Under the pieces are notes generated by a model. The model was not told where the DNA came from, ran no database searches, and saw only the letters and a program-made list of their open reading frames with translations. A stretch of 64,000 nucleotides of DNA. Origin: Undaria pinnatifida. Its lineage: Eukaryota > Sar > Phaeophyceae > Laminariales > Alariaceae. The position numbers were made by a program, and so were the translations under genes. Location of the stretch: assembly GCA_012845835.1 (NCBI GenBank), contig JABAKD010000004.1, positions 12,463,022 through 12,527,021 of the forward strand. Reading direction: 5' to 3'. Shown one piece after another: positions 30,721 to 63,013 of this stretch; the stretch's first letter is position 1; the number at the start of each line of letters is the position of its first letter.

Positions 30721-31651
30721 AACGTTCCCGTAGCCAGCTGCTCATGAATGATGAGCGTGCTCCGATCGCATAGCCCCCTGGTGTTTCCTTGGTACCTTGA
30801 GGTCAAAGACGTCTGTAGGGCGGCCGCTGGGCGCCCAATGTCACGTCCATGTCCTCCCGAGTGGCAGACCACCGGGGCAACCGGTAGTTTGTAAAGCATG
30901 AAATGCCAGATTTATTACAAAGGGGAAAAAAACGAGCTCCGGTGTCGATGCCCAGACCCAACCGGCTATCGCTCACGCACGATGGGTTCGAAGCCCGCGC
31001 GTAGATCTATTCGTGACGCTGGCCTTGGGAAAACACGAGGCCCAGGGGCCCCTTGACGCGATCTGAAAGGGGAATCGAGAAAGACGGAATTCACGAGAGA
31101 TGAGGCGGCAACAAGTTGAAAATTGAGAGGGGGACAATAGTTAGAGGCAGTGTGTGAACGAGGTGTGTGCATGGCTTCGGAAGTGAACGAACAGTGCGTA
31201 CATAAAGCGAATTGCTGAATCTCTACGGGCAATAGAATGAACTGCAGTAGTTCTAGATACCGCGCGAAAATCTTGTTGTGTCTACGGCCTTCCAGGCGTT
31301 CCAGAAAGGCATTGCGTTGTAGCTGCAATAAAATAATGTAAACGCATGCAGGTCGTTTCTGTCATCGGTACTGAATGCAGTAAAACGTACTTCATTCCCT
31401 ACTATTTACTCCACATTCAGTGAGAGCCGAGTAAACTCTCCTGATGAACGAAAATTATCACCCTTTCATTCTCCTTTCTCGCACGAGGCCTCGTAACGCA
31501 AGGAAAATTAATATACCTGGTATGGTCGTAAATATCGGACGCTCTTTACGTAACGAGAGGAACAACCCTGAGATCCGCCAACGTGGTGCTATCGTGCGGG
31601 CATAAACTGCCATTATGGTCGTTTAGTTGTTCGCTTATGCGCTTTACTCAC
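30721..31651. other. No gene recognised; possible 3' part of Root_cap-like gene
   Basis: The minus-strand frame 31328-30966 (120 residues) has no recognised domain. ATTTTATTGCAG ending at about 31323 on the minus strand would be a good 3' splice site and could open the exon after 31652, but the following reading frame is not recognisable. A GGGTTCGAAGCCC at about 30983 resembles a tRNA T-loop but no cloverleaf forms. Confidence 0.3.
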
Positions 31652-32506
31652 AGTCTTCCTGAATGCCGCGAATGGCACCCATGCCTTGCATGATGGGTGC
31701 GCCGTTATCGTTTACGGTGGGCACAAACGTTTCGCCGAGGATGCCTGTGGTATCGGGGCTCATGTCAATATGATCGATAGCCAAGTTCATTTGCCAGGTC
31801 AAGTGGTCCGGAAGGTCGAACTGGTCGGTGGGATCGCGCATCGGGAGTTGGTGCAGCCTGCCGTGGCTCAAGCGAAGTTTAGCTGTAGGGGTCACGATTT
31901 GGAAGGATGCGTGCTCAGACTCATGAGCGAGCAGGCCAACACTATCGTCTGCCGTAGCACGAGCCACGTATTCCTCGCATTCCGCTTTATTGGTTGCGGT
32001 GGGGTCGCCGAGAACCCAGTCCGACATGTCCACCAGGGTGTTCGACAAACTCTGTTTTCGACCGGACTGAGCAGCAGCTTCAAGCTTCTTCCGCTCCCAG
32101 TACTTCTCGAACCCAAAGGAGCGGCACGCCCCGGGAAGGTTGACGGCGGCGATTGCAATATCTGGGGCCACGGTAAGCTCGCCGGGAGAATGCATTATCT
32201 TTTTTCCGTCGGCGACCACGTTTAAGGCTCCGTCGGCGAGGCAGGGGGACAGTCCCGTGCGACAGGAACTTTGTAGACTGTGCGGGTTGGCAACGGTTAT
32301 GACGACGGTGTGGGCAAGGCCGTCCGCATCTGTCGTGACGATGGAAATTCCGGTGATGTAGGTGACCTCGGGCACAGAAGGGATAGGAGCGGTAACGCGC
32401 ATGTTGAGTTGCAGGTACGGAAGGTCCGACACGACGGCGTACCACGCACCATCTTCGCCCACAAAGTCGAATTTCTGCCCGCGGAAGCCGGTCATGTGCG
32501 GGTCAC
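31652..32506 (-). CDS. Internal exon of Root_cap-like protein
   Basis: An 855-nt open exon (285 codons, no stop) is bounded on the minus strand by a pyrimidine-rich acceptor (CTCCCACCCCCTGTCGCTCTC, shortened; ends CGAAG) and by the donor GTGAGTAA at 31651. Both splice junctions are phase 1, so the exon is symmetric. It begins with DPHMTGFRGQKFDFVGEDGA and contains LPYLQLNMRVTAPIPS, CRSFGFEKYWERKK, SEHASFQIVTPTAKLRLSHG, GRLHQLPMRDPTDQFDLPDH and GILGETFVP near the end. These resemble Root_cap-domain (PF06830-like) extracellular proteins found in plants and stramenopile algae. The in-frame ATG at 32495 is internal to the DPHM motif, so it is not the start. Neighbouring exons were not identified. 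Function is unknown; a secreted or cell-surface role is inferred. Confidence 0.65.
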
Positions 32507-33929
32507 CTTCGAGAGAGCGACAGGGGGTGGGAGAGTCAGGAATTAGATAAACTGCACGAATAAGTTATCTGCATAGCAGGCCTGCTCCTACGGCTTCAAC
32601 GGCCCAACGTATAGCCTGTCGTTCAACGGTCAAACGCGAGTACGCAAACCAATATAGTTGGATTCACGAAATTCATATTTATCGGACCCCCGACACTTTC
32701 CGAATTGCCGCGTCGGCACCTACGTGGCACCTGTCGTCCCACATTCCGACACCATTCATACTACCGTGTGGTCGTTCTCCGCGCGCATCATTTCATCAAC
32801 TGGTTGGAGGGCTTGGCATACGCGTCACCTTCTCCAACGGGTGAATATAATCGAGTGGATATGTTGAATAGCAGCCCTAATCGCGCCCGACGAGCTTTTC
32901 CGCTCATCATTTGTTTGTGAAAGGCGGGATAAACGGAGGAACTACGATGTGTTCCTTTCCGATATCGCCCGAAAACACATATTATGTACTATATATAGCA
33001 TTACGTCGTCGACTGAGAGTGAACCTGGTCCGAATTTTTTGAGTTTCTTCGCTCTCAGAGCTCTGCTCTATTAGGTGGGTGGTCCTCAAATCTTTCGGTT
33101 ATTGGTTCTTTGACCATTTTGATGCATGACGCGACGTTTCACCCCCGTGAGGCAGCATGATACCGTTATACCTGTGTGTAGGTTTCACATGAAACCGTTC
33201 TTTCTACCCAACGACATCAGTACACCCAGAGTCCGTGCTGATTTATCGTAGAGATATTTTCAAGTTCTGTGGTCACAGACGACTGTGAAACAGAGTTAAC
33301 AAAGCAGTCGCATTTCATCAAGGTAAAGCGAGTGAAGTGCTAGCATACCGGGAGCGAGAACAAAACAAAACAAGCCAGATCATAAAAATGAGAAAACAAG
33401 AAAAAAGGAAAAGTAAACAAAAATAAAACGAAAAAAAACACAAAACGAAACAAACGACAGATGCTCTGAAGGATGTGATGCAAGAAGACCGGAAAAAAAA
33501 AGGGCTGCAATTACCAGAGGAACACCTATCGTGCTGAAGAGGAATAGATACCTGTTGCACGGGCGAAACACGAAGAATATAGCTAACTGCTGTTGCACCG
33601 ACAAAACAAGACGAAGAACACAACAAACTGCTGTTTTATGGACAAAAATAACAAGAAGAAGAAGTAGATACCGACATGAGGCCGGTGGAGGGGGAAACAA
33701 TGGAGCAAACAAAATGAAAAAAGGACAGAAAAAGAGTGGACAACAGCAAGTCGTTACTATCACTTTCGCGCTTCCCTCATTGAACTCAACCAAAACAAAC
33801 AAAGAAGAAACTACCATTCGCTGTAGAAGGTTCAGGGCTATATCACACACTCAACTTAATTAGACAAACGGGCACCTTGCCACACGATCTGCCACTTCGT
33901 TTCTGCAGTCATCTATAGATGTATCAGTA
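32507..33929. other. No gene recognised; upstream of Root_cap-like exon
   Basis: On the minus strand TATATATAG lies near 33000-32990 and could be a TATA-like element. No first exon or signal peptide was found. From 33360 to 33700 the plus strand is very A-rich with diverged ~45-bp repeats (CTGCTGTT followed by ACAA-rich sequence at about 33550, 33587 and 33628). The hydrophobic minus-strand frame 33850-33380 is a product of that composition. Confidence 0.35.
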
Positions 33930-35700
33930 CGGCTGCCCCCCCCCCCCCCCCCTCCCCCCTCGGTTTTGCTGGGTTGCTGCTCTTGGCGTCCTCTGCTGTG
34001 AGACGTTGCCAGCTCTTCGCCGCCTCATCCCTGTGCCGTCACTTCCTCATGAAGCGGTTGTGCGGCGTCGACGATCCCCTGGTGCCAGTTCCCACTCTTC
34101 TTAGCTGCCCTCGGTCATAGCACAGTCTCTACTCCGAACGGCGTGCACCGTATATTGTACATAGTATTCCAGATCGCTGTAGTTTGTAGCCGCGAGTTGG
34201 TGCAATCATCAAACGACGTTTCCGCCGGGACACTTCACCTCGACCGCACTGCAGGGGAGCAATCCGCGGACCCCTCGTTTGCTCCGAATACCCTGATGTC
34301 GTCCTCCAGACACTGGGGCCAGTTGGTTTCTGGTCGGCCTTGTCCCTGGTTCACCTCACCAGCCATCGAACCGAACATCACGCGATGGGTCAGTCGCTTA
34401 TTGCCCGTCCCTTACACGGCTCCCGTAAAGAGGAGGCGTCGATTGCGGATAGTCGTATAACAGCTCTCACATTGTGCGTTCTTGAGAGCCTTGGCGTACC
34501 ACATGCGGTGGTCGGTGTGCTGTCGGCGCTGAAGGCCAATGATCCTTAGAAGGGGTTGTGGTGTGCCGTTCGGAGTTAAGCGAAGTGCTCCAGGCCGAGA
34601 GCCCAGGTCACGCACCCGTACAGCAGGGTCTGCATCGCCTCGGTCTTTAGCAGGCGCACCATAACAAGAACGGGGCATCCTCCATATCGTACAGCTCGTG
34701 CTTGAAACGGTCGTAGTATGCCCACGCGAGTCGGATCCATCGTTTGATCTCTGGCATGATGTTGGCGTTTGCATCGATAGGACCGCCTAGGTACAGAACC
34801 TGCATCTTCTGCATATATCTCTGGCCCGCTGCTTTGACGACAAGCGGTGAGGTCGGGACCACCTGGTTGAATATGCGCAGGAGAATTGTCACTGTTTTTT
34901 TCGGACACGATGAATCCTGCTGCTTCGAAAACGGTCACAATGACGGTAATCATTTTCACATATCCTTCCCCCGACTTAGAAACAATACCTGCATCGTCGG
35001 CGTACAGCATACACCAGCCTGACCTTCGCACACATGCTAGCGGTTCAACCTCCACCCCGTCCTTCCCGACGTCATTCCCGAGGTGAACCAAGTCCCTCAA
35101 AATGTCTGGGTCCTCACTGAAGCGTAGCATGACGGCATGTGTCGCAGCGGAGAAAAGTGCATTGAAAAGAACGGGCGACAATACACACCCTTTCCGCGGT
35201 CCCTGGGTGACGTCAAACCGTTCAAATTTCTCACCGTCGTCCGTGCTCACGCGAGCTCGCATGCCTTCGGGGAACTGACAGATAGTGGTCAGCATCTTCT
35301 CTGGTACGCCGAAGCGTGCGAGCACCACCCACAGCAGCTCTCAGTCGACGGAGTCATATGGTTTCTGGAGATCGATGAAACATATTTGCAGAGGCATTCC
35401 CCTAGCAGCTCGTCCGAGTTCTTGCAGTCGGCGCACGACGAATAGCATGTCCATTGTTGATCGGGCAGCGTGAAAGCCGCACTGTTCTTCGGGGGGTCTC
35501 ACAGTAGTTGCTCAGGCGGGACGCGACCCTTTCTAACAGTATCTTACCGAAGTGGGCAACGAGCGAAATCCCTCGGCAGTTGTTGCAATCAGATCGATCC
35601 TTCTTTTTATGAAGGACCTTAATGATTGCATATTTTCACCGCTGGGGGACGTCTCCCGCACGTTGAATTGGTCGCTAGAATTTTTCAGCGTTTTCATCCC
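33930..35700 (-). mobile_element. LINE (non-LTR retrotransposon) RT remnant, 5' truncated
   Basis: On the minus strand, reverse transcriptase domains appear in order: [20 protein letters not shown] (about 35610), [34 protein letters not shown] with a TGA stop just after it, [37 protein letters not shown] and the active site YADDAGIV (about 35010), which is intact. The part after EKNSDN (34880) shifts frame. It continues with [43 protein letters not shown] and FGVETVL to about 34100. It ends in a C-run (G-run on the coding strand) at 33936-33955. No endonuclease domain is present upstream of 35700. Confidence 0.85.
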
Positions 35701-43065: not shown

Positions 43066-43536
43066 GAAGCACCAACAGTTAACCATGCTTCGTTGGACCT
43101 CATACCAGGTAAAATAAGCATAGACTACAGCAACAGCAATAGTCTTAAGCAGCAGACCATACGCATTAATGGGGTATCTGTGTTCCCCCTTGTGGACTAA
43201 TGACGCCCCCGGCATATGAAGGCAACCTTATCCTGTCCCGAAGGGGAATCTCGTACTCTACCAGGTAGTACTCTATTGCTATGTATAGACTAGTCTAATA
43301 CTGTTATATGTGCAACGCGATGTAAAATACTACACGCAAATTATGTAGAATACGTTAAACAAAATATTATATACGAGCATACCATAACACCGTACGAGGT
43401 AGGTCGGTGAATACTTCTTCGGCTTTCTCACCGCAAGCGCCGACGTCGATTTCGGCAGCAACTTCACAGATGTTCTTCGATAGGCAGCATACTTCGCCAC
43501 TGCCCGTGTCGCATTCACTGTCGTCCGTGCAAGCTA
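43066..43536. other. No gene recognised
   Basis: Short frames only. The palindrome TAGACTAGTCTA lies at 43286-43297. Confidence 0.3.
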
Positions 43537-43677: not shown

Positions 43678-46600
43678 GACATCCGGAAGAACCGGGTGCA
43701 TCCGAGTTAGATCTTTGTGAGTCCTCGCGTTAGCTGGTTAATGGCGATTCTTGACTGGCGCCTGCTGCACTGCACTGCACCTCCACCATCCTGAAGAGTC
43801 TTCGACCACTGCTGCTGCAACTGCTGCAACGTGAAAATAAATGTAAACACACCTAGAAGCAATACACGTATGGAGGTATGTTGTATATAGCTACCCTATG
43901 GGTAAATATTCCATGGAGAGCGGTCGATATATCACCTCATCCTATCCTGGCGTGTTCGTTAGGCAAAATGCAGGATGTACGCACGTATGACATGCGTGAT
44001 TTTTGGCGCATGCTATATACGAACATGACGATTACGAGGAGCACGGGTAGGGGTGCACCAACGATTTTCTGGGGGACCCGATTCCGTCAAGTCCATACCT
44101 CGCCCAGCACTGATGTTTGATATAAAATGAAGGTGCACCCAGGTCCATCGAGATGGTCGAGATGCGTGCTATAGACTATACGATACAAGTGGCATTTTTT
44201 TAGGTCTAAACAGTTTCTGAATGACGAGGCTCCTCATTAACCTAGATAGATTCATACTATTATTGTATTTATAACGTTGATAGCTTAGTCTATAGCTTAT
44301 AGCATATTATAGCATTATAGTATTAGAATATACCTCGTCGGCATTTTTCTTGTATAGCCTAAATACTATCTACTACCAGGTATAGACTAGACTAATATGC
44401 CTAGGTCAAAAGGTCAAAACAGATTAGTTCATCGGCTTGCACTCGCAGTTTTGCCCAATCTTCAATTTTTTGGGTGAGTTATGACATAGGCCTCCGCCTC
44501 CACAGGTGAGAAGCTCCACAAGGTAAACGGTGGTACACCTCTGCCTCCGTAGCATGTCCTTCGTGTCATTGTGCCATCATCATCTGTCTGTCCGGGATCA
44601 AATTGACCAAAGCCTGCTACCGCCAACGTAGCAGTCGTCGTCTACTAATAGCGTATTAGTGTGAAAGAAAGTGAACTGCAATAACTCAAGTGTTTGAAGG
44701 TTGTTCACCAGCGACGCGGCAAACACATCTTCTACGATTTTCAAAGGGGTATCATACCACTTTTCCGCAAATGCTTTCAGAATGGCGGGCATTTTAACAG
44801 TCCACACTAAAAGCGCCATGTTTGGTGGACGTCCGTCGGAGCAGCGCCTATCAAGGCCGTAGTGCTGAACAAAGCCGGGCACGTGTTGAGCACAGAAGAA
44901 TAGAAAACACTCTCTTACGGCCTTGGGTTGATTCAGTATCTTTAACCGTGCCCAGACATACCGCTCAAGAGTAGTGTAGACTATATAACAGACCAGGTAC
45001 TTATTAAACTGATAGCGGTGTTTTAACCTTAGAGTGAGCTGTTCGAAACAGTATGGGTCTCCACCCTCCTTGGGCAGACACTAGGTTAGGCAGCGGTGGT
45101 GTCAACGATTCTAATGTTGCGGGCGCAGAGCGATCGCGATGGAGATAGCGTGGGCAGGTGTCACGGGGACGGGGTGCAGTAGGACGTGGTACTCCCTGTA
45201 GATACTTCGATTTGTGGTTAGCACTCACTACGGTATAGATAAAGAGGTTCAACAGGGATGCGCACGTTTCCTCGTTTATACTTTTGAGTCCTGCTCCAGT
45301 AAAGGAGCTGCAGCTATTGTGATAGATGGGGAGGATCCCGCCCCAACCGAGAAGACACTCGATCGTTTTTCAATTCGGTTCGTGCCTCGCTATTTTATTA
45401 GATTGTTTCTGTCGTGGTATGCGGATTGCGCGAAAATCAATTTCACACAAACTGGTCTCCCTCCTGGACGAGTTACATAGTTCCTCGGACAGAAACTGAC
45501 AAACTGATAAAACAGAAGGTATCCCCTCTACCGCAGTATGTACCCTTTAGGGTTTCTTTCTTCGAATGCGCGCTCGCATTTGTTCGTGTCTAAATATGAT
45601 ATTTGTCATGTACATTCATCGAGAAAACCATGGCCGGGGCGTGTCTAGTATCGCTAGGCCGAAAATGAGGTGAATCTACGTGTTTGAGAAACATGGGACT
45701 GTAACTTGTAGTTTCTCTGCGTTGCCTCCAGTCTTTGATACACGTTCGATGAAGGAGCCCCTCTTTACAGCATCGTCAGGTATGAATACGGACCGTTCTG
45801 AGGTTCTTAGATGAGGGAGAAGGAACCGCACAAGCGTAACAGTCTGGTGGGAGCATTCCTACTGTAAGCAACACCGAGATACCCAGTTCGTGATTAATGA
45901 CGGGAGTATAGACGCCGCATGAAAGGTTGCATCCAGGTTGGCGCCGAACCCGGCCTGTTGGGCGCTCGGCAGAAATACAGGTGCCTTCATAGTTTACTGT
46001 ATGCTGCGATGGGGGTGGCGCGAAATGTTTGTGAGACTCACGTGCTCCCTAACTCACTAAGAACCCTGTTTTGAGGAAATGCGAAATTTCAACCTTCAAG
46101 AACGGTCCCATGGCCTAGGTTTGTAACAAATCTTATCGAACATAAAACATGGTGTTCTTTTGGTGTTGATTTTCGGATCCCCGTCAGACAGAGATTATCG
46201 AGGAGGGGCCACCTCTACTCTGGGTGCCTTCATTTAGGGTTGGCGATGTCCCGCAAGATACGGTTTCTATAGGAAACGAGCCCACCAGCAGGCACTGACC
46301 GTCTGGCCTCACTGCGCGACGTACGACTGCTCGTACTGCAATTATTGTTTGATGCCGCTTTGTCCAGTAGTGCCAGGTGTTGCTGGTCCACACCAGTTCA
46401 GAGTTAACTCCATGACTTATCACCACATGATCACTTACAAGGAACGCAGTTGTAGCCTGTTGCCCCAGTAGTACACACTTCTTCTGTGTCGCACTCAACC
46501 GCTTCGGCTGGTGTGCATTCTGGTGGGCAGTTCACGATTTTGGCAGGAACAAGCTGGTATTAGGGGTTGCTATGGGTTCTGTATTGGCATGGATTATAAG

Positions 46601-49600
46601 CCGTTCAGAGGCATCGAGAGGGGCGACGTCGCCAATCGACCGGTACATCAGGCAACAACTACAGTACACCAAGCCATCGGCCACTTATAGCACTCAAGGC
46701 TTGGTGGTTTTCGTACGTTGTCGGCACGATTGCCAAATCCATCCTTCGAAGGGTACCGCGCCATTGTCCCTTTGGCAGTCTGAAGAGGTACCTCCCTCGT
46801 GCCATCGACCTCGCGTTGGAACACTGACAGAGAGTATATAGCCACCACAATGCTACACGTTAGGCACACAACCATGGATCTCTTAAAAAGCTTACCGCAC
46901 AAGTCGGCGGTGGTTGGCAGATCCAAACTGCTCGACGCGTACCTGTATATACGGGGACGCACGAACGGGACGGCAACGAACGATATTGGTTTCACACCGC
47001 ATCATTCCATGTTGACCGCGTGTCGTGTTCACACCCAGAGTATGTTTGCACACGGGTACATCATAACTCGTGCAGATGGTATCGCTTGGCTCACCCGCGG
47101 CCGCACTCGGAAATATTCGGCTATACCCGACCCAGATTCTATCGCATGTGAGCTCTCTTTGCTACCTTCAGGACTTACTAGAGTTGCCAAGACCCAAACG
47201 TTTCGCAATTCCTTTCACTTATGGTGCGTTTGGGTCGTTCGATGAGCCCCGCCGCCCCCATGGAATTGCTTGTTTCGCTGCACCAACATAACGTATTGCG
47301 CCTAAACATGACCGAGGTACATTAACCTATAGACTACAGTGGTACAAGTGGTCCATACCGACACTACTAGTTTAGAGAAAATGAAGGTATAGTACTACAC
47401 CCTATAGTCTAAGCACGTGTATTTGTTGATTTGGTCATGTCTCACCCACAACATGGGATCTACATGAAATCATTTGAGGGCGGATGATACCGGGCGCAAG
47501 CGGCGTTGACGCGAAATAACCAATGGGATCGAGCAAACGCTTATCGAATCAAGGGCGAGCGCGAACCTCCGTTGCACTGTGGCGTGTCCGAGACAGATCG
47601 ATCTGCATTTACCAAATACTTTCTATTTCGGCTAAACAAACGGACTTGGATGGTTCACGCCCGCCCGCTTACCAACACGCAAGGATATTGATGATGCAGA
47701 GGTTACACATGACTCACGTGACAGTGGGAACACACTGTAGATTATCGTTGTCTTCCAGATTCCTGAACGAACAGAACACGGTTGGCATGCACAACAAGGT
47801 TTGACAGATTAGCGGAAACGTGCGGGCGACAGACTCTCAGCAGACACGCCGTTCTGGTAGACATGGAGGTAGTAGGAAAGCAACGACCGGCTGATGTTAT
47901 TATGTTGGGTAGTCTGTTTCGTCTAAAAATTGCTACCAGGTATTTACTAGTTAGTCTACTTGAGCTGAATAATATGACGGCTAGCGGACTGGTTTAATTG
48001 CTTCAGTAATAAATTCTCATGCCGAAAAGCTCTATGCCTATCGCAGCAGGCCTTGGTAGTGCTATTACATTACTATATATAGCCGTATGCCAACGCCCGC
48101 TATGTCCTTTGCTACGGGCTTGTGATGCGAGCAAATCACAACTGATGTGGATAGCTGAAGCACGTACTCAGATGACCCAGGCCTCCACTTCATGGCAGGT
48201 CGACAGACAGCTGATGGTTGTTGTGGTAGTTGTGGTAGTTGTTTTGTTCGTTGTTGTGCAACACAAGTACTTGCTGCCGTAGGGGCATCATGTTTTGTTG
48301 ACATTGTGGACATTGTTGACATTTTTCATGCCTGATGGGCCTAGAAACTACATACCTGTGTTATGGCATTCCCCTGGAAGCCCAACAAGGCGTAATATAT
48401 GGGAAACGTCTATATACCAAAGGGTTTCACATGCTTTTGGAGGCATGGTCGTATAGAAAAAAGGAGATGATGATTTTGCCTTGCGGAACTTCACGCTATT
48501 TAGCGCGTCCGTGGCGTGTGTGGAAGTAATACAAGAGCTTATCTAGTACAACTGAGCTTATCTAGTACAACTGAGTGGCCAACGTGGAACATGCCTAATA
48601 GAGAAACCTGCAAAGAGAGGGTGGCCTGTGTCTGTAACCGGCGTTCTTAGTCTTGCCTGGCAATGTCGGCGGGGAAAATGTTGTGCATCAAAACATTGGT
48701 CACACATATTTACTAGCTACGGTAGTCACGTGTTTATTCATCGGTTTGCACGTTCGCTTTTTCTCAAACCTTAGTTTTGATGGGGTATGATGTATTATTA
48801 TGTATTATGATGTACTTTGTATGATGTACGATGTGTTATTAGTCCATGTATGGAGCCCCGCAGGTGAGGCGCACATTTAATAGCAAAAAACGTGCGCGTC
48901 GGATGGGTGCCACAGCAACGGAATTCGATCTGCTATCGTGTGTCGCAGTACAATAACGATCTGTGTGGGAGAGGGCCCAGAAGAAGGCGCGTGCTAGGTT
49001 TATATTGACGGTTACGGTTTTAAGGGCCCCTCACTTAAGAGGGTCTGTAGCTTAAACCAATAAAAACAGCTTAAACCATTGATAATAGCTTTAACCATTT
49101 ATAGTCTAAACTATCAATAGCTTTAACCATTAGACTAGTCTAATAGCTTAATCTATCAATAGCTTAAACAAAACATAGTAATCGAAAGACCAACCTGATG
49201 AACAACCTGCGGTCTAGGTAAGCTGTGGAACAAGTAGTATCGCTGTATTACTTTATTACTGTATCAATAGAAATAATTGTATTTATAGTCACTAGTCTAA
49301 TGCTACGGTAAAGGCGCGCCGATTTGCTCCGAGGTTGCCCGCTCCAGGAGTGCTCCCTTCCGACAAAAAGAAGAGCGAACCCCATGGCCTAGGCGTAAAC
49401 TAGATGTTGATGTTGGCTCATGTTGTCACTGCATACTGCAAAACAAGAAAGACATTTCGACGACAACGCGATATCGGGTAATACTTGTATGACTTCATAC
49501 TTTACAGGATAAGGAGCACCGTCAGCCGGACAACAATACGCAACACTTTAACTGCTGTCCGGATGAATGCTTGGCAATTATTTCATTTCGCCGAATTTGC

Positions 49601-54110: not shown

Positions 54111-54191
54111 AATGTTACGACTTCAGTGGCAGAACCCAGTTCCAGGAATATTCCAGCGGGAAGCGTCGTGAGGTCGTTGTCGTTGAGAAGC
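54111..54191 (-). CDS. LRR exon 6 of 6, 81 nt
   Basis: Minus-strand exon between acceptor ...ATCTAATCAG and donor GTGAGTGCC. It reads (L)LLNDNDLTTLPAGIFLELG then SATEVVT(L), a leucine-rich repeat of the N-x-L-x-x-L-P-x-x-x-F type. At 81 nt it is 9 nt longer than the standard 72-nt exons, which adds three residues near the C-terminal end. Phase is kept (first base completes a Leu codon, last two bases begin one). It is the lowest-coordinate, so most 3', LRR exon found. LRRs bind proteins or glycans; here a receptor role is inferred from architecture. Confidence 0.7.
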
Positions 54192-54633
54192 CTGATTAGA
54201 TCAAGCGTGAAATGGGCGACATGCATATATATGCATATATAGCATACGAAGGGGGGTTGTGAAAATACTTCTCTGACATATTCACGATATTTCAAGACAT
54301 TGGTTAGTTTTGGTATGCGAGGAAGACTCCCACCCCTCGATGGACACATTCATACCTCTTATTATTGGCTACCTATCATACGGTTTAACGCCCCAAGTTA
54401 AACCAATTCGAGCCGATCAGTTCACCCCAATTCAACAATCCGTTATTCTTCCGCCGTCGAAGCATATGATATTAGTAGCGGAACTTGATATGGCTACTCT
54501 CTGAACGCTGCCAATGATTCACTCGAAGAAGAAAAGGTGCCCATTGGTCCGAGGTTTAATACCCCCTTGCTCTTTCTGAACGTTCCCCCGTGAGGAAGCC
54601 GGGGAAGCACCCCCTTAATCGTAGGCGTCCCCC

Positions 54634-54682
54634 TAGGGTTATTAGGGTTATTAGGGTTATTAGGGTTATTAGGTTTAGGGGT
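54634..54682. repeat. TTATTAGGG telomere-like 9-mer repeat
   Basis: About four perfect TTATTAGGG units, then a variant ending TTTAGGGG. It resembles a telomere repeat with an inserted TTA. On the minus strand it reads as Pro-Asn-Asn repeats in an open frame. Confidence 0.9.
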
Positions 54683-55583
54683 AGTGGCCGAAGCATGTAA
54701 ACATAACTGTTTCTCCCTTGCGGGAAACCACGTACTTAGGGTTCGGCAGGCCGGATCTGGATCACATCCTATACATACAGCAAATGTCCCTACTGAAATT
54801 GCCGAGCATGCCATCAATCCATCAATAATGCTTATAACTGAAAATGGGTACATACACGTGACTTGTTTATGAGGCTCTTCAGTTGAACAGATCTACATAT
54901 CACACGACCACCCAACAACACAACGGCTCATTTCCAGAAATTGGGTACGCTTTAACCATGCCACCACGCCACGGCTCAGACCAGGACTTTACGGAGAATT
55001 ATAGTCTAGCGCCCGAAAAACTATTACTAGTCTGGAGGGATTATATTAATGGCCGGCATTGGGTAGTGCATACGTCTAGTTGAGGAGTTTATGCTGCAGT
55101 CAGCATGCAATGTTTATGCAACTCAAAGTTTACCCCGATACTAACACTTGTCAAATAAAAATGTCACCACTCATCCTACGTATTATATGGTGGACGCGTT
55201 GTCTTCCGCGCGGGACCGCGGCGCCAAGGCCTCTGCTTCTCGATATATTGTATCGTGTGTTTCCGTCCTCTTAATTCTGTAGCACTGCATCCACGTGTGT
55301 TTGAGGACAAAAAAAATTAACTTAGTGTAACCTTGCTTTGTTCGGGGTAGTAAATGGTTTACTGACCATGTCTCAGGTGCGTCGTTCCCAATCGTTGAGC
55401 GGTTGGGCGAAGCAGGGGAATCAATAACAAAACTCACTATTGACACTGGCCCGGTGTGACGCGCTTCCAGCGAGCCTCCGTGATCTACCCCAATGTACCC
55501 CAAAGTACCCCAGGTCCCGCTTACATAAAGCCTACGGCTAAGGAGACCCGTCTATGGGGTCTCGGGTTTCAGCGACTCAAAGC

Positions 55584-55597
55584 CACTCGCGCGAGTG
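55584..55597. other. Palindrome CACTCGCGCGAGTG
   Basis: Perfect 14-bp palindrome. Related palindromes recur at 56591 and 60508, with decayed versions at about 56404 and 62797. Confidence 0.7.
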
Positions 55598-56029
55598 ACT
55601 GGGTATGATATGCATGGGCATTTGGTTTGGAAAAAACAACCGCCTTTACAGCCGTTATGGGACGTTTTTTTCCTCCACGTCATGGTAATATGTTTGAAGT
55701 CCGCGTTGTTTTGCGAGGCAACACTGAGCCAACGCGCGAGCGCGGCCTTTGCGAGCATCGGCATTTCCCCCGTATCGTGGCCTTGGTCCCTACGCGGGCA
55801 GTGCTACCGGTCATGCTCTCTTAAGTTTACGGCACTACGACGTGAATGTGCCATCAATCGGTCCCATTGTGCATGTTTGGTTTCTTTCCTTAAAGAGCAT
55901 CAGAAGGACCACGGTACGGTAGAGGTGGCATGTATCGTGTCTCAGGCTATTTAGCTGGGAAACTCTACTAACTGTTAATACCTTATTGCTTACTTCTTAC
56001 TACTTGCTGCAAAAAAAAAAATTGAAACT

Positions 56030-56235
56030 GAATCGAAACTGAATAAAATGCAACCGGGTGAACAATCCCATGGCCAGGGTTTGCGACGAATACCATTCAT
56101 TGCACAACATGGTTGACATCCCGGCAAAGGTGAGTTGAAAAGTCCCGTCATTCAGAAACCATTTAACCAAAACGGAGCTGCTCCTGTCACCCTACTATCG
56201 TGTCACGGTTTAGTAGCTCACAGCAAACCGTTATT
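56030..56235. repeat. Intron block shared with 58545-58740
   Basis: Shared landmarks with 58545-58740 include AATTCCnATGnCCnnGGT, ACAnnGTnG-ATTTCCCGGC, CATTCAGAAACCATTT and CCTATCnTnGGT-like sequence. Both copies lie just below an LRR exon in plus coordinates, that is in the intron downstream of the exon. A third, weaker relative is at 46096-46180. Confidence 0.5.
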
Positions 56236-56590
56236 GTCCCGTCGACAGTCATTACGGCGAGCAGCTAAGGCACGCTTCATACCAGCCGTTTAAACGCTTA
56301 TCTATCGGATCAGGCATGGTGAAAGAAAGAACATAACGTCTATGGACCAAGGCTACCAAAAGGGAGGAGGGGGTGCACTTTTATTCACCACCTATATTTG
56401 AGCCACGCGCCCGAGTGACTATGCACCTCACCGTGGCGAAAATACCTTGGCCGATTTGCTTGACGCAGCGTAGCTAACCATTCCGTGGCGGAGTCATGTC
56501 CCAAGTTGAAGGTGTTACTACAGTACCAGGTACAGCACGAGGTACAGCTCTATTAGGTTAAGAACGCTTAAGACCGCTAAGGAATAGGGG

Positions 56591-56610
56591 GGTCACTCGC
56601 GCGAGTTACC
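56591..56610. other. Palindrome GGTCACTCGCGCGAGTTACC
   Basis: Twenty-base inverted repeat with one mismatched pair (C against T). Second member of the family seen at 55584 and 60508. Confidence 0.7.
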
Positions 56611-56670
56611 CCGCGCGACTGCACAAAAAGTCCCAAACGTGACTCAATCACTGTAGCCGCATGTACTCAC

Positions 56671-56742
56671 AATATCGTCAGAGAATATAGTCCCGTGAAG
56701 GCGTCCACGGGTAGGCTTACCAGCGAGTTTTCATCCAGTTCC
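56671..56742 (-). CDS. LRR exon 5 of 6, 72 nt
   Basis: Minus-strand exon between acceptor ...CGACCAG and donor GTGAGTACA. Translation (L)ELDENSLVSLPVDAFTGLYSLTI(L) fits the 24-residue LRR consensus very well, with Asn in the N-x-L position and Phe where the consensus has it. It is the most divergent from the other five in DNA sequence (for example TTCACGGGACTATAT), so it is not a recent duplicate. It keeps phase 2 on both sides. Confidence 0.8.
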
Positions 56743-57347
56743 CTGGTCGTACACACAGGGTTTGTACGGCGTGGACGCTTTTGTTAAGACGGTTCATGGA
56801 CGCGTCGGGATGATACATGATGAAACATGTGAGATGGATTCTCTTCGCGGGGTTGTTCAATGTATATATTTAACTGTTTTTTCTGCGAAGGGCCCGTCCA
56901 AATAACGCCCCTTCAAGCACAACAAACACGAATGAAGCTCGGACTGCCGCGTAGAGTAAGCGTTTGACTACGAGGGATTACCCAGGTGTTGCGTAGGTGT
57001 GTGTGGGATTATCATTAGCAGGAGTGCCATCCCACGATAGGCGTTACAGGTGCTTACGATTTGATCGGTCAAGATCGGTTAAGCTCCTCAAGTGAGTAAA
57101 TACCAACAAAATTAAACACGGTTTAACCACTACACTTAGTTCCTATACAAATTGGCTTTAGGACTAACCTGGATGGAACGCGTTGCTTGGATTGCGTGAA
57201 CGAGTGCCTTCGAAATGACTTTTCGGGTGATTATGGACGACAGATGTTGTGTGATGATGTATGATGATGTATGGTGTTGATGATGTTGACCTCCTCATGC
57301 TAGGAGCGCAAAGAAATTCCGCTGCACCCCTTCCGCGGGATGAGTCG

Positions 57348-57391
57348 TTAACCCTAACTTAACCCAAACTTAACCCTAACTTAACCCAAAC
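57348..57391. repeat. Degenerate telomere-like 22-bp repeat
   Basis: TTAACCCTAACTTAACCCAAAC occurs about twice in tandem. It is built from CCCTAA-like words (the complement of TTAGGG) with inserted TAACTT. No orientation or function can be assigned. Confidence 0.85.
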
Positions 57392-57865
57392 TCAATTCAG
57401 AACTTCGTATGCTGGGCATATACGTGTGCATTTAGGTGGACGAGAGCGTGAACTGGTTCGCTTGCGTATAGCGTTTACTACACTTCTACGTCAAATGCAA
57501 GTCGTTGGCAGTGGATACGGCGGAAAACTCTGTACCCAACTCAGCCGCGAGCGACAATCACCGTCGGGTAACGCTGCACACCACACCTCCACACATCCAT
57601 CCCTTGATCGACCGATGATCGCTAATAAAGCTCGCTTGATTGCAGGTAAATTTCTGCACACAAGTGCCATCTCAGACGACACAACCTGAGGATCGCATGA
57701 AAGGTGTTGATCGCTCGGAGCAACAATCCAGCGACGCGTTTTCCAACACGCTCTGTTTCAGAGGGCAATTTTCTCTGGTTCAACCTCAGCCTTTCCGGAC
57801 GCGATCGATGGTTCGGCCGCGCTCGACACAATGTTACAATAGTTGTTCGACCTGGATGCAGCCTG

Positions 57866-58456
57866 AGGACTATGGACTAAGGACTAAAGACTGAAGACTA
57901 AGGACTAAGGACTGAAGACTAAGGACTAAGGACTGAAGACTAAGGACTAAGGACTGAGGACTAAGGACTAAGGACTGAAGACTAAGGACTAAAGACTGAA
58001 GACTAAGGACTAAGGACTGAAGACTAAGGACTAAAGACTGAAGACTAAGGACTAAGGACTGAAGACTAAAGACTGAAGACTGAAGACTAAGGACTAAGGA
58101 CTGAAGACTCAGGACTAAGGACTGAAGACTAAGGACTAAGGACTGAAGACTAAGGACTAAAGACTGAAGACTAAGGACTAAGGACTGAAGACTAAGGACT
58201 AAAGACTGAAGACTAAGGACTAAGGACTGAAGACTAAGGACTAAAGACTGAAGACTAAGGACTAAGGACTGAAGACTAAAGACTGAAGACTAAGGACTAA
58301 GGACTAAGGACTAAGGACTAAGGACTGAAGACTAAGGACTAAGGACTGAAGACTAAGGACTGAAGACTAAGGACTAAGGACTAAGGACTGAAGACTAAGG
58401 ACTAAGGACTAAGGACTAAAGACTGAAGACTAAGGACTAAGGACTAAGGACTAAGG
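57866..58456. repeat. GACTAAG heptamer array, ~590 bp
   Basis: About 84 tandem heptamers of the types GGACTAA, GGACTGA, AGACTAA and AGACTGA. Order is locally regular (GAAGACTAAGGACTAAGGACT repeats every 21 bp), indicating higher-order amplification. It lies in an LRR intron. Confidence 0.97.
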
Positions 58457-58544
58457 CACACGCGTGCTACGGTAGAGGTGCATCAACCATTGTTGTTTTT
58501 CTGAGGTTCCTCAATTTGGAAGCTCAAAACCTCTCCCAGAAACT

Positions 58545-58740
58545 GAGTTGGTAAAAAAATTAAATGATACCGGACGAAAATTCCTATGACCTAGGTATAC
58601 AACAAAATTATGAAGAAAACAATGTCGTATTTCCCGGCGATTTTGGGCCAATGAATGAGCGCCACCCTTCAGAAACCATTTCATGTCAGACCAAAAGTGC
58701 CGCCTCTATCCTATCATAGGTCTTCCGTCCTTAGGCTACA
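58545..58740. repeat. Intron block shared with 56030-56235
   Basis: Second copy of the block, ending about 45 bp from exon 58787-58858. See the entry at 56030 for the shared landmarks. Confidence 0.5.
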
Positions 58741-58786
58741 ACCGAAGAGATTGATTGCCACAGTAAACGCTAAAACATATACTCAC

Positions 58787-58858
58787 AGTTCGACTAGCGA
58801 GCCCATAGCAGCAAAGATGTTCGGTGGAATGGTCGTCAGCTGGTTTGTGTGGACCTCC
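58787..58858 (-). CDS. LRR exon 4 of 6, 72 nt
   Basis: Minus-strand exon between acceptor ...CATTGGATCAG and donor GTGAGTATA. It reads (L)EVHTNQLTTIPPNIFAAMGS then LVE(L). A reading frame stays open upstream through the acceptor (minus 58965-58783), so frame alone does not define the exon. The start is set by the AG, by the phase and by the exact 72-nt length shared with three other exons. Its GAACT|GTGAGTAT donor is nearly identical to that of exon 61810. Confidence 0.85.
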
Positions 58859-60951
58859 CTGATCCAATGCACCAAGGTCAAAAGCGATGGCGGGAACGTA
58901 GAGGACATCAAATGACCGGAGTCGGAAGGGAGGCTGGGGGTACCGCCACATGGTATCAGATACAATATGAAATATTGGGGTGGAGAAGGGCGGGGGGTTG
59001 TTTGAGGCTGACCGCCAGACCAAACTTCGCTCGCTTGGCACCTGCGCTACTATCTATGGGAGACATCGACCTACGTCTTTCGCGGGGCCACGATACCCGT
59101 AGCTCGTGTCACTTAAGTGTCACGCCCGGCCCGCATTTTTGAGCTTCGACGAGAAGTTCTCAATCTCATAGCTGAGGTGTACGGGCATCAGTGTGCATGA
59201 TTCATGTTTTTAAAGTGAAGTTTAAACGCAAGGGAATCGTTGCTTCTTGGCTTTGTTGACATAACATTAGCATCGTGCAGGGTTCGAACAGCAGATCTTA
59301 CTTCCCGGTGCATCGGGCAACGTAAAAATGCCATGCTGCACGACGGAGTGGTCGTGTAGGCCACAAAATATGGTGAGACCGACCGCTTCCACTCGGCGTG
59401 AACATGCTAGGGCGTACATGTATCTGGGGGAACGAGGACGTATACCGTACCACGCGTGTATTCCCCAGCTCCACGCTCGTTGCACACGAGGAACAGTGGG
59501 CACGACGAACACCGTGAATGTGTTAGTATTACTATTACTGTAGACGAAGGCTATGAGACTGGGGTGTATCTGCATTTGTTGAGGCTGATCGCTTGAGGGG
59601 CTCCACGTTTGATCCCGAACAAGACGTCTGGAAAGCATCGAAAAGCTTGCCGATGGAATCCCCCATGGCCCAGGAATACACAAAATAATGCTGGGTGCTC
59701 GAAATGTATCGGGCAGGCCTGGCAGTGTCGTAGGCATGCCACTCATAATCCGTTTGGCCCAAATATGCTACCTTTATCGTAGCACGTGTCACCCAACACG
59801 CAAAAAATCACAACGAGCAAAGATTAACACCTACCTGTGATACTGAATACAACAAATCCGCAAACTCTTTAAACTGAAAATCACTAGCATTGCCCTCTCT
59901 TGGTTCCAGTGAAGTTCCGGTATGTACACCAGTATACTGTATTACACCAGTATACTGTATTACAGTAGTAGTACCAGTACCATCTAAGATGGATTTTTTG
60001 TGGGGTGTCAGTATGGCCACGGTGTTCTCCACGCTCGTTTTTCGAAGTACATTACAACCCGGTTACCCTCAACCGCTCCAAGACGACGGCATGATTCGAC
60101 TGACCACCCTCGATATGCGTAGTCCTAGTATTAGTACGATAAAGGGGTACACTCTTCGGCCAACCCTTTACGGCGTTATCATCAGCGGGGCTCCCCAAAT
60201 ACGGTAAATACTACCAGGCACATACCCTAATACAGGTAAAATAGTTTATCGAAGTTATGTCCAGCGATACCATGGCTACTGTACCCGTTTTTCACTTCTG
60301 CGTTTGAGCAACTCCCCCAAGTAACTCTTTACTCAACGAAAACATGACTTGTGTCAATTTGTGTGGCGTAGGTGTAACTAACCATTCCATGACGGTTTAA
60401 TATTACGAACAAAAAAAATCCCCCCTCCAACAAGCTAATAGCTAGTAGCTAAAAAGCCAGTAGCTAGGGTTAGAGCTAACAGCACCGCTCAGGACACAGA
60501 AGGGGGGGGTCACTCGGGCGAGTGACCCCAAGACGCTGCAAGAAGAGGTCCGGCAGATGATTCCTCTGCCGTAGGCACGGTTTCAACGTTATTACTATTA
60601 CTATTACTACGACTATTACTGGTACTGCTATTGCTACTGCTACTGGGATGTACCTAAGACATGAGATTGCTATTTTGTCACGTTAATCTTTCTTTTTGCT
60701 CGAGGCCAGTATTTGTATTTGGACATCTGATGATGCGATTGGGCGATGAGGCAAGTTGAGGCCTTTATCTTCTCGCTTCAGGAACCTAGGACAATCGAGC
60801 GCACTTCTACAATTCTATCGCAGTACTATCAAATTAGCAGTATGTCTTGCTCGACATATTGTTTGATGGTTGCCGTCTCAAGATATTATACAGCCGACTG
60901 CAACCGACGAGCGTTTGAAATATGTACAGCGACACATTTGGGAACACTCAC
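58859..60951 (-). other. Intron between LRR exons
   Basis: It contains a small MITE-like fragment (59138-59186, CTCATAGCTGAGGTGTAC end), a triplet tract (60590-60640) and the 22-base palindrome at 60508-60529. On the minus strand it has a short open segment with FQFKEFADLLYSVSQ followed by GTAGGT (59880-59836). That last piece is distantly similar to FQLKQLEHILCFP at 63845-63810. No additional LRR was found. Confidence 0.5.
60508..60529. other. Inverted repeat GGGTCACTCG-GG-CGAGTGACCC
   Basis: Ten-base perfect arms with a two-base spacer. Strongest member of the palindrome family (see 55584, 56591). Confidence 0.85.
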
Positions 60952-61023
60952 AGTTCTTGCACCGACCCTAAATCAACAAATATGTTGTCTGGAAGAGTCT
61001 CGAGCAGGTTGCCGTTTATCTCC
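60952..61023 (-). CDS. LRR exon 3 of 6, 72 nt
   Basis: Minus-strand exon between acceptor ...ACGAACTAG and donor GTGAGTGTT. It reads (L)EINGNLLETLPDNIFVDLGS then VQE(L). DNA identity with exon 61810-61881 is high (GGAGATnAACGnCAACCTGCT shared), and differences concentrate in the second half, that is in the variable, solvent-exposed part of the repeat. This pair looks like a tandem duplicate about 0.86 kb apart. Confidence 0.85.
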
Positions 61024-61809
61024 CTAGTTCGTTTTGAGAACAACGGCAACGCGGTGACAAGAAGCGCAAGTCATGTGATCGGATGGGTTAGAGATACCAG
61101 GGCGAATTTACAGCATAGACAATCCCATCATCATGGTCAAGCTTCTTCTCTGTGGAACAACCGTTAGCTCCGTTCAGGTTCGATTCAACAGATCTACCCT
61201 CTCGCCGCGACGAGCACGAACGAGGCATACCCTTTCGCGTACGAGACTGGGGTATAGCGTCCGAGCAGGGCCCATTCGATGTTGCCGCTGATCGCTGCTA
61301 CGGCGCCTTCATAGACTCGAGCCCATCTACGTACGTAAGAGCGTACAACGTGTAAGGTTTTTATGCCAAATCTCCCGGTTTGCTGCGCGTAGTCTAGACT
61401 ATAGTTCGAGTATACGGTGGGCAGTGAATACAGCTTGAAGTGGATACCGTAGAGACGGCCACAACCGGTAGTACATGACAGACGTACGACTACTACAGTC
61501 TACACGTAGACGGATCCATTCGATAACACTGCTTATTGGTTCCTGACATGTTGTGAATACACCAGCTACAACTGAAGCACAGAACCGAAAGATGGACGTG
61601 AAGGGTGTCGGCCGCTCGGCGGATGAACACTACGGCAGCGACGGTTTTTCCCCTGCCAACATTCCACCTATAGCTATCATCGCAGATCAACGTCACCAAC
61701 CCCAGGGAGGACGAATTGATTCGGGCAACCTAACACCTTATTGACAACATGCTATGGGTCACGGCCGGCTGCAGCATCACAATACACAAGTAAACGTTTG
61801 GATACTCAC
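61024..61809 (-). other. Intron between LRR exons
   Basis: About 0.8 kb, no repeats of note. It contains the segment 61580-61640 that resembles 57690-57740. No coding evidence. Confidence 0.5.
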
Positions 61810-61881
61810 AGTTCTGTCAACGACGTCATATCAGCAAACACGTTCCCTGGAAGGGTCTCCAGCAGGTTGTCGTTAATCTCC
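61810..61881 (-). CDS. LRR exon 2 of 6, 72 nt
   Basis: Minus-strand exon between acceptor ...CTGAATCAG and donor GTGAGTATC. It reads (L)EINDNLLETLPGNVFADMTS then LTE(L). All LRR consensus positions (L, N, L, L-P, F, L) are present and there is no stop. First base completes and last two bases begin a Leu codon, so it can be joined in frame to any of the other LRR exons. Confidence 0.88.
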
Positions 61882-62938
61882 CTGATTCAGTATGTCAGTA
61901 AAAACGACAGCAGGCAACGGAAATGGCGTGACTCGTTCGAAAGATGAGGTTAAGCCCGCGTGATAATGATATATCATATGAAGCTAGCAGGGGGATTCTC
62001 CGTCGTGAGCTTGTCGGGAAATCTTTTTTCGTTGCCTTATCCCGTTTCTAGAGCTTTATATGCTGGTGCATAGTTGTATCTCGGGGTAGGGGGGGGCGCG
62101 CCATGCCGCGGTTGATTGCCTCACCCAAGCATTCCCTACCCGTCGCGAACAGTGGACACGCAAGCTATCCTCGAGCGACGATCACCACCTGCAATGTTGT
62201 ACACTGCGCATGCTCACATCTATCCGACCGGAGATCACACGGCCCCCTTGGTTCTAGTTCTCTACCGACATCTTCGTCACATCTACAATAATGTTAACTT
62301 AGGCTTGGCCATGGAAGGCGTTCGCTGCTCAAATTATCGATATGGCGACGACTGTAATTGGCGTTCGGGCTTGAAATACAAACGTGAACCGCCTGGCCCG
62401 AGGGACCCCACAGACGACAGAGAAGTCCAACCTCGCTCGACCTCTTGCTTCCTGGAACAAAAGTCTCGCTGTAGGCATGTCTGACGGCAAGAACCTATAG
62501 CTACAGTAGGGCGGCTACATGACTACGGTAGACGAGGAGTACCTTCCTCGAGGGTAGACCGCTTGCTCACACAAGTGGCGTGATAGACCACTTGCTGACA
62601 CAAGCGGCGTGGTAGACCACTTGCTGACACAAGTGGCGTGGTAGACCACTTGCCGACACAAGTGGCGTGTACATCGCTCGAATGAACATCAGATTCAAAA
62701 ATTTAATACACAACGATTGGCTCAACGTTACAAAATTTACATATAGTGGCGATGCATATCGCGAACCGGAAAACCGGCATGTAGAGGGGGCGTAGCCACT
62801 CGCGCGATAGGTTTATTTTTCGGCAGGTGAAAAAACAAACTCCCTGAAAAGCAAGCTCATTGCCGTGGCGCTGGTCCCCATCGAAATTCGATTTATATAC
62901 ATTCCGAGTGTAGTAGGCCATCCTCTTGGAACACTCAC
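61882..62938 (-). other. Intron between LRR exons
   Basis: Contains the 29-bp hairpin repeats (62555-62670), a decayed copy of the CACTCGCGCGAG palindrome near 62797 and a segment similar to 57560-57600 (GAGCGACGATCACC at 62173). No coding evidence. Confidence 0.5.
62555..62670. repeat. 29-bp hairpin-forming tandem repeat, 4 copies
   Basis: Units start at 62555, 62584, 62613 and 62642 (TAGACCACTTGCTGACACAA then GTGGCGTGG). Each contains arms CCACTTG and CAAGTGG around a CTGACA loop. Variation falls in single bases (CC-G-CTTG in unit 1, AAGCGG in unit 2, CCGACA in unit 4). It is not a CRISPR array: there are no spacers. Confidence 0.95.
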
Positions 62939-63013
62939 AAACTGTCGATAGTCCCTGCCATAGCTGAGAAGAGGGTTTCTGGAAGGGTCGCCAACAGGTT
63001 GTCGCTAAGGCGC
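62939..63013 (-). CDS. LRR exon 1 of 6, 75 nt
   Basis: Minus-strand exon between acceptor ...CACTAACCAG and donor GTGAGTGTT. It reads (L)RLSDNLLATLPETLFSAMAG then TIDS(L). At 75 nt it has one codon more than the standard. The C-terminal part (MAGTIDSL) is less canonical than in the others. It is the most 5' LRR exon in the window; upstream exons would lie beyond 64000 or remain unrecognised in 63014-64000. Confidence 0.8.

What the first reader, a model, noticed from the sequence alone, without database searches (positions are those of the whole stretch)
54111..63013. Array of six single-LRR exons with interchangeable phase: candidate exon-shuffling receptor locus
Seen: six minus-strand segments (62939-63013, 61810-61881, 60952-61023, 58787-58858, 56671-56742, 54111-54191). 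Each encodes exactly one LRR, each has an AG before and GTGAGT after, all are phase 2 on both sides, and four are exactly 72 nt. None has a stop. Established: in Ectocarpus, candidate pathogen receptors (LRR-ROCO GTPases and NB-ARC-TPR proteins) have repeat domains encoded by same-phase exons that are shuffled between loci. Inference: this is such a locus, or a cassette reservoir for one. Any exon can be added, lost or swapped without breaking the frame, and variation sits in the binding-face half.
Basis: partly seen in the sequence, partly recalled or inferred. Interest (0 to 1): 0.88.

Follow-up and report, generated by a model that had tools for sequence, protein, structure and literature searches.

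The report
Kelp secreted LRR–VWD gene family
The six small exons are real, but they belong to one long gene for a probably secreted protein that joins leucine-rich repeats to a von Willebrand-type domain, not to a ROCO immune GTPase; in this kelp-like alga the gene has many relatives, some with unusually variable predicted ligand-contact residues.

The parts
62939..63013 (-). LRR exon 9 of 14, 75 nt, phase 2/2 (RLSDNLLATLPETLFSAMAGTIDS)
   Evidence: LRR exons 1-8 and the N-cap exon lie beyond the window end, in the same numbering: N-cap 85268-85357; LRR 84477-84548, 75752-75823, 74584-74655, 73446-73517, 70430-70501, 69546-69617, 65745-65813, 65133-65204
61810..61881 (-). LRR exon 10, 72 nt, phase 2/2
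   Evidence: 78% nt identical to exon 11
60952..61023 (-). LRR exon 11, 72 nt, phase 2/2
58787..58858 (-). LRR exon 12, 72 nt, phase 2/2
56671..56742 (-). LRR exon 13, 72 nt, phase 2/2; same type (SLPVDAFTGL) as the exon before the 81-nt cap in the C28 paralogue
   Evidence: 61% aa identity to the best exon of that type
54111..54191 (-). LRR exon 14, 81 nt, last LRR; the C28 and C22 paralogues also end their LRR series with an 81-nt exon
47718..47762 (-). LRR C-cap micro-exon, 45 nt, phase 2/2 (NLEDNDNLQCVPTV)
   Evidence: similar segments in the C28 and C22 paralogues
46896..46942 (-). linker exon, 47 nt, phase 2 in / 1 out (YASSSLDLPTTADLC); the least certain exon of the model
   Evidence: chosen by frame and resemblance from 15 candidates; fits the C-x-C position of the Ectocarpus and Scytosiphon proteins
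46439..46519 (-). cysteine-rich exon A, 81 nt, phase 1/1
   Evidence: tblastn from the C28 paralogue E=0.001
43432..43533 (-). cysteine-rich exon B, 102 nt, phase 1/1 (CTDDSECDTGSGEVCC...)
   Evidence: noticed in the frame listing; not recognised in the C28 and C22 paralogues
31652..32506 (-). GDPH-motif von Willebrand D-type domain exon, 855 nt, phase 1/1
31007..31062 (-). terminal exon, 56 nt, ends in TAG (RVKGPLGLVFSQGQRHE)
   Evidence: resembles the C-termini of P0158, P0167, P0182

Best explanation
The six exons are the last six LRR repeats of one minus-strand gene, C48:12494028-12548378, window numbering 31007-85357 plus an unfound first exon. It encodes an N-cap, 14 LRRs, a C-cap, two cysteine-rich modules, a von Willebrand D-type domain with a GDPH motif, and a short tail in which no membrane anchor is evident. 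The protein is most likely secreted into the cell wall or extracellular matrix, where the LRR arc binds a ligand and the VWD module anchors, multimerises or presents it. Each LRR is its own symmetric exon because the array grew by duplicating exon plus intron inside the gene, as the ~1-kb tandem units of a C22 paralogue still show. Shown here: reading frame, homology, predicted-fold match and the genomic family. Inferred: splicing, secretion, ligand binding, anchoring, and any role in recognition.
Against: No transcript was available. The leader-peptide exon of this gene was not found, so secretion rests on homologues. The intron before the VWD exon is 11 kb and holds a reverse-transcriptase fragment. 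This gene's VWD exon is much closer to VWD exons elsewhere in the genome, whose architecture I did not determine (up to 78%), than to those behind the C22 and C28 LRR arrays (about 35-39%). Only 7 of the 72 proteins found with the C-terminal part carry an LRR label. The best three hits to the LRR string (P0001-P0003, Ectocarpus) end in another cysteine-rich tail without GDPH, although that search could not return proteins over about 593 aa. The 47-nt linker exon is uncertain. The scan was tuned on the reported exons. Ten of 50 LRR clusters have no GDPH match in range.
Confidence: 0.85

Rival explanations
1. LRR-ROCO GTPase (or NB-ARC-TPR) locus: the LRR exons splice to ROC and COR exons and shuffle between such loci.
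For: Brown algal ROCO LRR exons are also 72 nt and called phase 2 (PMC11378527).
Against: The reading frame ends in a VWD-type domain and stop. 52 ROC matches listed in the genome, the only one on C48 about 1.5 Mb away; 12 NB-ARC matches, the only one on C48 at 0.56 Mb. The paper places the repeat at exon nt 3-71 with the four selected sites at 14, 16, 18, 19; here the repeat is at nt 2-70 and the equivalent positions are 23, 1, 3, 4, so the cassettes would not be frame-compatible if the paper's numbering is literal.
Confidence: 0.03
2. Silent cassette reservoir of LRR exons without a gene of its own, as suggested in print for non-ROCO 72-bp LRR loci.
For: PMC11378527 (discussion) reports 15 such non-ROCO sequences in S. 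japonica, most with LRR motifs only, and suggests a reservoir.
Against: N-cap, C-cap and C-terminal domain in one frame; 40 of 50 such clusters lead into a GDPH match; VWD exon under purifying selection.
Confidence: 0.05
3. Two neighbouring genes: an LRR-only secreted protein ending at the C-cap or Cys exons, and a separate VWD protein downstream.
For: 11-kb intron with transposon remains before the VWD exon; 65 of 72 VWD-type proteins found carry no LRR label; P0001-P0003 are LRR proteins with another Cys tail.
Against: Phases 1-1-1 join Cys A, Cys B and VWD without a gap and give the same order as P0158 and P0167; in the 134 nt upstream of the VWD exon that I read, its frame has no ATG between the last stop and GDPH.
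Confidence: 0.1
4. Secreted LRR-VWD protein working in gamete or self recognition or in cell-wall adhesion rather than in defence.
For: The VWD-type module sits on metalloprotease, CAP, subtilase, LPMO and beta-helix proteins, which suits matrix biology; fast-evolving contact residues also occur in gamete recognition (recalled).
Against: Nothing here separates it from defence; it shares the gene model of the best explanation.
Confidence: 0.35

Closest known systems
LRR-ROCO GTPases of brown algae (Teng et al. 2024, PMC11378527; Zambounis et al. 2012 only as cited there)
   Same: One 72-nt exon per LRR; in the paralogues of this locus the four codons on the concave face (x L x L x x) vary most, as in the paper's four selected sites
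   Different: No ROC match near; caps and a VWD-type domain instead; the repeat sits in another register in the exon (nt 2-70 here, 3-71 in the paper's text)
Non-ROCO sequences with 72-bp LRR exons in S. japonica (PMC11378527, discussion)
   Same: Possibly the same class of locus (inference, not tested)
   Different: There described as mostly LRR only and a possible reservoir; here most clusters are followed by a GDPH exon
Unnamed LRR-GDPH proteins of Scytosiphon promiscuus (P0158) and Ectocarpus (P0167, P0181 partial), and P0182 (source eukprot, species not shown)
   Same: Module order N-cap, LRRs, C-cap, two Cys modules, GDPH domain; tail in P0158, P0167, P0182; leader visible in P0158 and P0182
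   Different: Different LRR number and loosely aligned LRRs; Cys-plus-GDPH part 56-58% identical for P0158 and P0167
VWD domains of mucins, VWF, RGMB, FCGBP (that the aligned parts are VWD domains is recalled)
   Different: 8-13% identity; inserted helices in the model; no Pfam match
Lamprey variable lymphocyte receptors (recalled)
   Same: Capped extracellular LRR arcs with variable concave residues
   Different: No evidence here of somatic assembly

Membership tests
LRR-ROCO GTPase | ROC GTPase domain on the same gene | tested here: not met
   Model ends in VWD and stop; the only listed ROC match on C48 is about 1.5 Mb away, of 52
LRR-ROCO GTPase | COR domain | not tested
   No search with PF16095 was made
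LRR-ROCO GTPase | 72-nt single-LRR exons, same phase | tested here: met
   11 of 14 LRR exons are 72 nt, 14 of 14 phase 2/2
LRR-ROCO GTPase | Same register of repeat in exon | tested here: inconclusive
   Differs from the paper's text, but no LRR exon was recognised in stretches upstream of two ROC hits of this genome to compare
NB-ARC-TPR | NB-ARC domain | tested here: not met
   12 matches in the genome, the one on C48 about 11.9 Mb away
Brown algal LRR-GDPH protein | Module order N-cap, LRR, C-cap, Cys, Cys, GDPH, tail | tested here: met
   alignment with P0158, P0167, P0182 and the partial P0181
Brown algal LRR-GDPH protein | Signal peptide | tested here: inconclusive
   First exon not found by pattern scan of 85357-164000 or hydrophobicity scan of 85358-125000; leader seen by eye in P0158 and P0182
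Von Willebrand D domain | Fold | tested here: met
Von Willebrand D domain | Pfam VWD profile | tested here: inconclusive
   No Pfam family at E 0.1 for the window exon; the profile may not reach it
Lamprey-type assembled LRR receptor | Somatic assembly of cassettes | not testable with these tools
   Needs matched tissue genomes or transcripts

The most novel reading that the evidence does not exclude
Kelps hold a germline repertoire of secreted LRR-VWD recognition proteins: 40 LRR-exon clusters followed by a GDPH exon were detected in this genome, fifteen of them within 1.9 Mb of one contig. It grows by tandem duplication of ~1-kb exon-plus-intron units and diversifies the four ligand-contact codons of each repeat faster than intron DNA. 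Because sixteen consecutive exons of the window gene are symmetric, alternative splicing could further vary the binding arc. This would be an extracellular counterpart of the intracellular ROCO repertoire, with the window gene as an old, slowly changing member.
Probability: 0.35. Interest if true: 0.85.

Novelty: new variant of a known kind. Interest (0 to 1): 0.66.

Why it matters
In the six passages of a 2021 macroalgal review that I saw (PMC8307928), brown algal candidates are LRR receptor kinases, ROCO and NB-ARC-TPR proteins; none of those passages mentions a capped, secreted LRR family. A large family with one exon per repeat, variable contact residues and a matrix-type VWD domain would be a concrete candidate for extracellular recognition in kelps, against pathogens or between gametes, that can be tested with RNA-seq. 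It also raises the possibility that 72-bp LRR-exon loci previously called possible reservoirs are genes.

Tried and rejected
ROCO and NB-ARC partner: searched and not found near the locus. ROCO-type LRR exons for comparison of register: none recognised in 9.6 kb and 2.4 kb upstream of two ROC hits nor in the 3-kb loci around twelve ROC hits (which listed only a few chance-looking open segments), so that comparison rests on the paper's text. First (leader) exon: scans gave no convincing candidate. Pfam on 18 different window ORFs of 150 aa or more, of 50 listed: only a weak reverse transcriptase (1.3e-5, below Pfam's cut-off) and one sub-cut-off TPR-like hit (0.0076). Rfam (gathering threshold) and ARAGORN: nothing. 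Recent tandem duplication at the window locus: between exons only short similarities (80 nt at 80% for exons 10/11, 98 nt at 76%, 90 nt at 76%), no long intron homology carrying exons.

Positive selection is not proven. Counting dN/dS at the four concave codons gives 0.97 (bootstrap 0.59-1.61) for the common exon type and 1.41 (0.55-3.92) for the other, against 0.53 and 0.32 for the rest of the exon; synonymous differences are raised at the same codons (0.51 against 0.20 in the common type), which gene conversion of the rest of the exon, or multi-step codon changes, could cause. The intron comparison is the stronger result, but it uses only pairs whose flanks align without gaps, which favours low intron divergence: ratio 2.20 at the loosest threshold (167 pairs), 3.18 at the strictest (26 pairs); with ten disjoint pairs the rates are 0.325 and 0.197. 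The second exon type gives 0.417 against 0.207 in 12 pairs of 7 of 10 exons, ratio 2.00 (1.08-3.01). These exons come from 17 loci cut out of 40 matches found with window exons as query (20 loci were cut, three of them the window's own) plus the overlapping stretch L037, so the sample is not random: 38 distinct exons of 72 nt, 28 of the common type, 22 of these in the 113 pairs. The four codons were noticed in the same data before testing, though LRR geometry and the ROCO paper point to the same positions.

The cluster test used limits that I chose (12 kb to join exons, 35 kb to a GDPH match); the window locus itself is one of the 40 and lies at 28 kb; many single-exon clusters rest on weak matches (E up to 10).

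Literature: searches. Those for a GDPH or VWD-type domain with brown algae or Ectocarpus and for LRR tandem families in Saccharina and Undaria listed no paper describing such proteins; only the held open-access library was searched. PMC11378527: parts 1-5 of 6 of the text read, plus passages. PMC8307928: six passages. Zambounis 2012: not read, only as cited. Other papers: search listings only.
Full report
What is there. The six segments are exactly as described. The window lies at C48:12463022-12527021 of a 511-Mb assembly in 68 contigs. A protein whose label I read as Undaria (recalled meaning of 'Undpi1') finds a best match of 96% there, so the source is probably a kelp near Undaria, but not clearly that species. 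I fetched 100 kb beyond the window's upper end and 60 kb below it. An AG...GT phase-2 LRR-exon scan of the 224 kb found 14 exons on the minus strand with scores 64.5-133, the next candidate at 30.5. In a repeat with controls the count at 60 or more was 14 on the minus strand, 0 on the plus strand and 0 in each of ten order-1 Markov sequences. Eleven are 72 nt, the others 69, 75 and 81 nt. All 14 are phase 2 on both sides.

What gene it is. A protein search with the 14 repeats found three Ectocarpus proteins (P0001-P0003) with a leader, an N-terminal cap, many LRRs and a cysteine-rich tail without GDPH; their cap pointed to an N-cap exon at 85268-85357. A paralogue on C28 (L037) showed a large GDPH-motif frame after the LRRs; searching with it hit window 31653-32525 at E=8e-44, and its cysteine segment hit 46446-46520 at E=0.001. 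Filling in the C-cap, linker, second cysteine exon and tail gave 21 exons whose phases run 2,2...,2 then 1,1,1 and stop without a break: 763 codons from 85357 to 31007. The model follows the module order of Scytosiphon P0158, Ectocarpus P0167 and P0181 (partial) and P0182; the LRR parts align loosely, the two cysteine modules, CGDPHM and the rest of the domain closely. Only the leader exon is missing. No hydrophobic anchor is evident in the short tail (read from the sequence, no predictor run).

Not ROCO. The genome has 52 listed ROC matches, the only one on C48 at 10.99 Mb, and 12 NB-ARC matches, the only one on C48 at 0.56 Mb. The C-terminus is a VWD-type domain and a stop. The published ROCO exons are also 72 nt, but the paper places the repeat at nt 3-71 with selected residues 14, 16, 18 and 19, whereas here it is nt 2-70 with the equivalent positions at 23, 1, 3 and 4; I could not confirm the ROCO register in this genome. 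The same paper notes non-ROCO loci with 72-bp LRR exons, 15 in S. japonica, most with LRR motifs only, as a possible reservoir. My result suggests these may be LRR-VWD genes with unannotated 3' exons; that link is inference.

The family. 150 LRR-exon matches (E up to 10, 150 of 154 first-look candidates scored; a lower bound) form 50 same-strand clusters, and 138 GDPH matches were found (E up to 0.01; 106 span 750 nt or more). 40 of 50 clusters have a GDPH match within 35 kb downstream on the same strand, 35 of 50 within 8 kb; 1 of 50 has one within 35 kb upstream. The ten without are on C1 (2), C2 (3), C28 (2) and C33 (3), all single-exon clusters. Fifteen clusters lie on C22 between 21.76 and 23.63 Mb, 3-8 detected exons each at median spacings of 858-1079 nt, with GDPH 3.3-4.7 kb after the last. 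One of them, read over 13 kb, has LRRs, an 81-nt cap, C-cap, a Cys segment and GDPH in the order of the window gene; the second Cys exon was not recognised there. Five of its six exon-plus-intron units are 76-82% identical to one another, one of them over half its length. So that array grew by tandem duplication of exon with intron. The VWD exons of the C22 and C28 genes are only about 35-39% identical to the window's, which is nearer (71-78%) to copies on C48, C37 and C33 whose architecture I did not determine.

Where variation sits. Among common-type exons from the paralogues, residues 1, 3, 4 and 23 - the x positions of x L x L x x, the concave face - are the most variable (2.2-2.8 bits in the 25 counted; 17 of the other 19 positions are below 1). 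In 113 pairs (22 of 28 exons) with alike flanks these codons differ at 0.458 per nt, the rest of the exon at 0.113, the flanking intron at 0.182; ratio to intron 2.53 (bootstrap 1.89-3.21), 2.31-2.71 with any one locus left out, 2.20-3.18 over flank thresholds, and only 1 of 8855 sets of four codons - this one - reaches the value. Plain dN/dS at these codons is about 1, not above it, so diversifying selection is suggested but not proven. The window gene is different: its 72-nt repeats are 22-65% identical in amino acids, and variation is spread over both halves (1.60 against 1.66 bits). It does have local exon duplications.

How it most likely works. Shown: a continuous frame with capped LRRs and a VWD-type predicted fold, with paralogues. 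Inferred: the protein is secreted, the VWD and cysteine modules hold it in the matrix or make it multimeric, and the concave face binds a ligand; in the C22-type genes new specificities arise by exon-unit duplication and change at contact codons. Whether the ligand is microbial, a gamete partner or a wall polymer is open. Symmetric exons would allow repeat number to change by splicing or deletion without a frameshift; no such event was observed.

Verdict. Observation confirmed; assignment to ROCO or NB-ARC wrong; the idea of a recognition family with exchangeable repeats is reasonable for the wider family and unproven for this locus.

Noticed in passing
G000:C22:21.76-23.63 Mb (L004-L011, L014, L015, L017-L019, L050): Fifteen arrays of single-LRR exons at median spacings of 858-1079 nt, each followed 3.3-4.7 kb later by a GDPH match; a candidate fast-evolving gene cluster more striking than the window locus itself.
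   Followed up: partly
window 34576-35328 (-): Reverse-transcriptase fragment (RVT_1, E 1.3e-5, below Pfam's cut-off) inside the 11-kb intron before the VWD exon.
   Followed up: no
window 57875-58452: 21-nt satellite, about 28 copies at 90% match, inside the intron between LRR exons 12 and 13.
   Followed up: no
window 22553-24236, with TTAGGG x 6.8 at 23860-23900: Long degenerate array of GGAAGCTTTCATGGAAG/CTTCCACGAAAG-like units enclosing a perfect telomere-type repeat.
   Followed up: no
window 12054-14023 and 20911-20935: Three 221-codon ORFs spaced 652 nt apart (12054, 12706, 13358), with a short tandem motif of the same repeat again at 20.9 kb.
   Followed up: no
window 16530-19096: C-rich tandem repeats with periods of 40-216 nt that create long ORFs on both strands (17250-18881 minus, 543 aa) without a Pfam match; probably not genes.
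   Followed up: no
proteins P0117-P0188, the named ones brown algal: A VWD-fold domain without a Pfam family is attached to metalloprotease, CAP, subtilase, LPMO, ankyrin, beta-helix and LRR regions; it deserves its own family model.
   Followed up: partly
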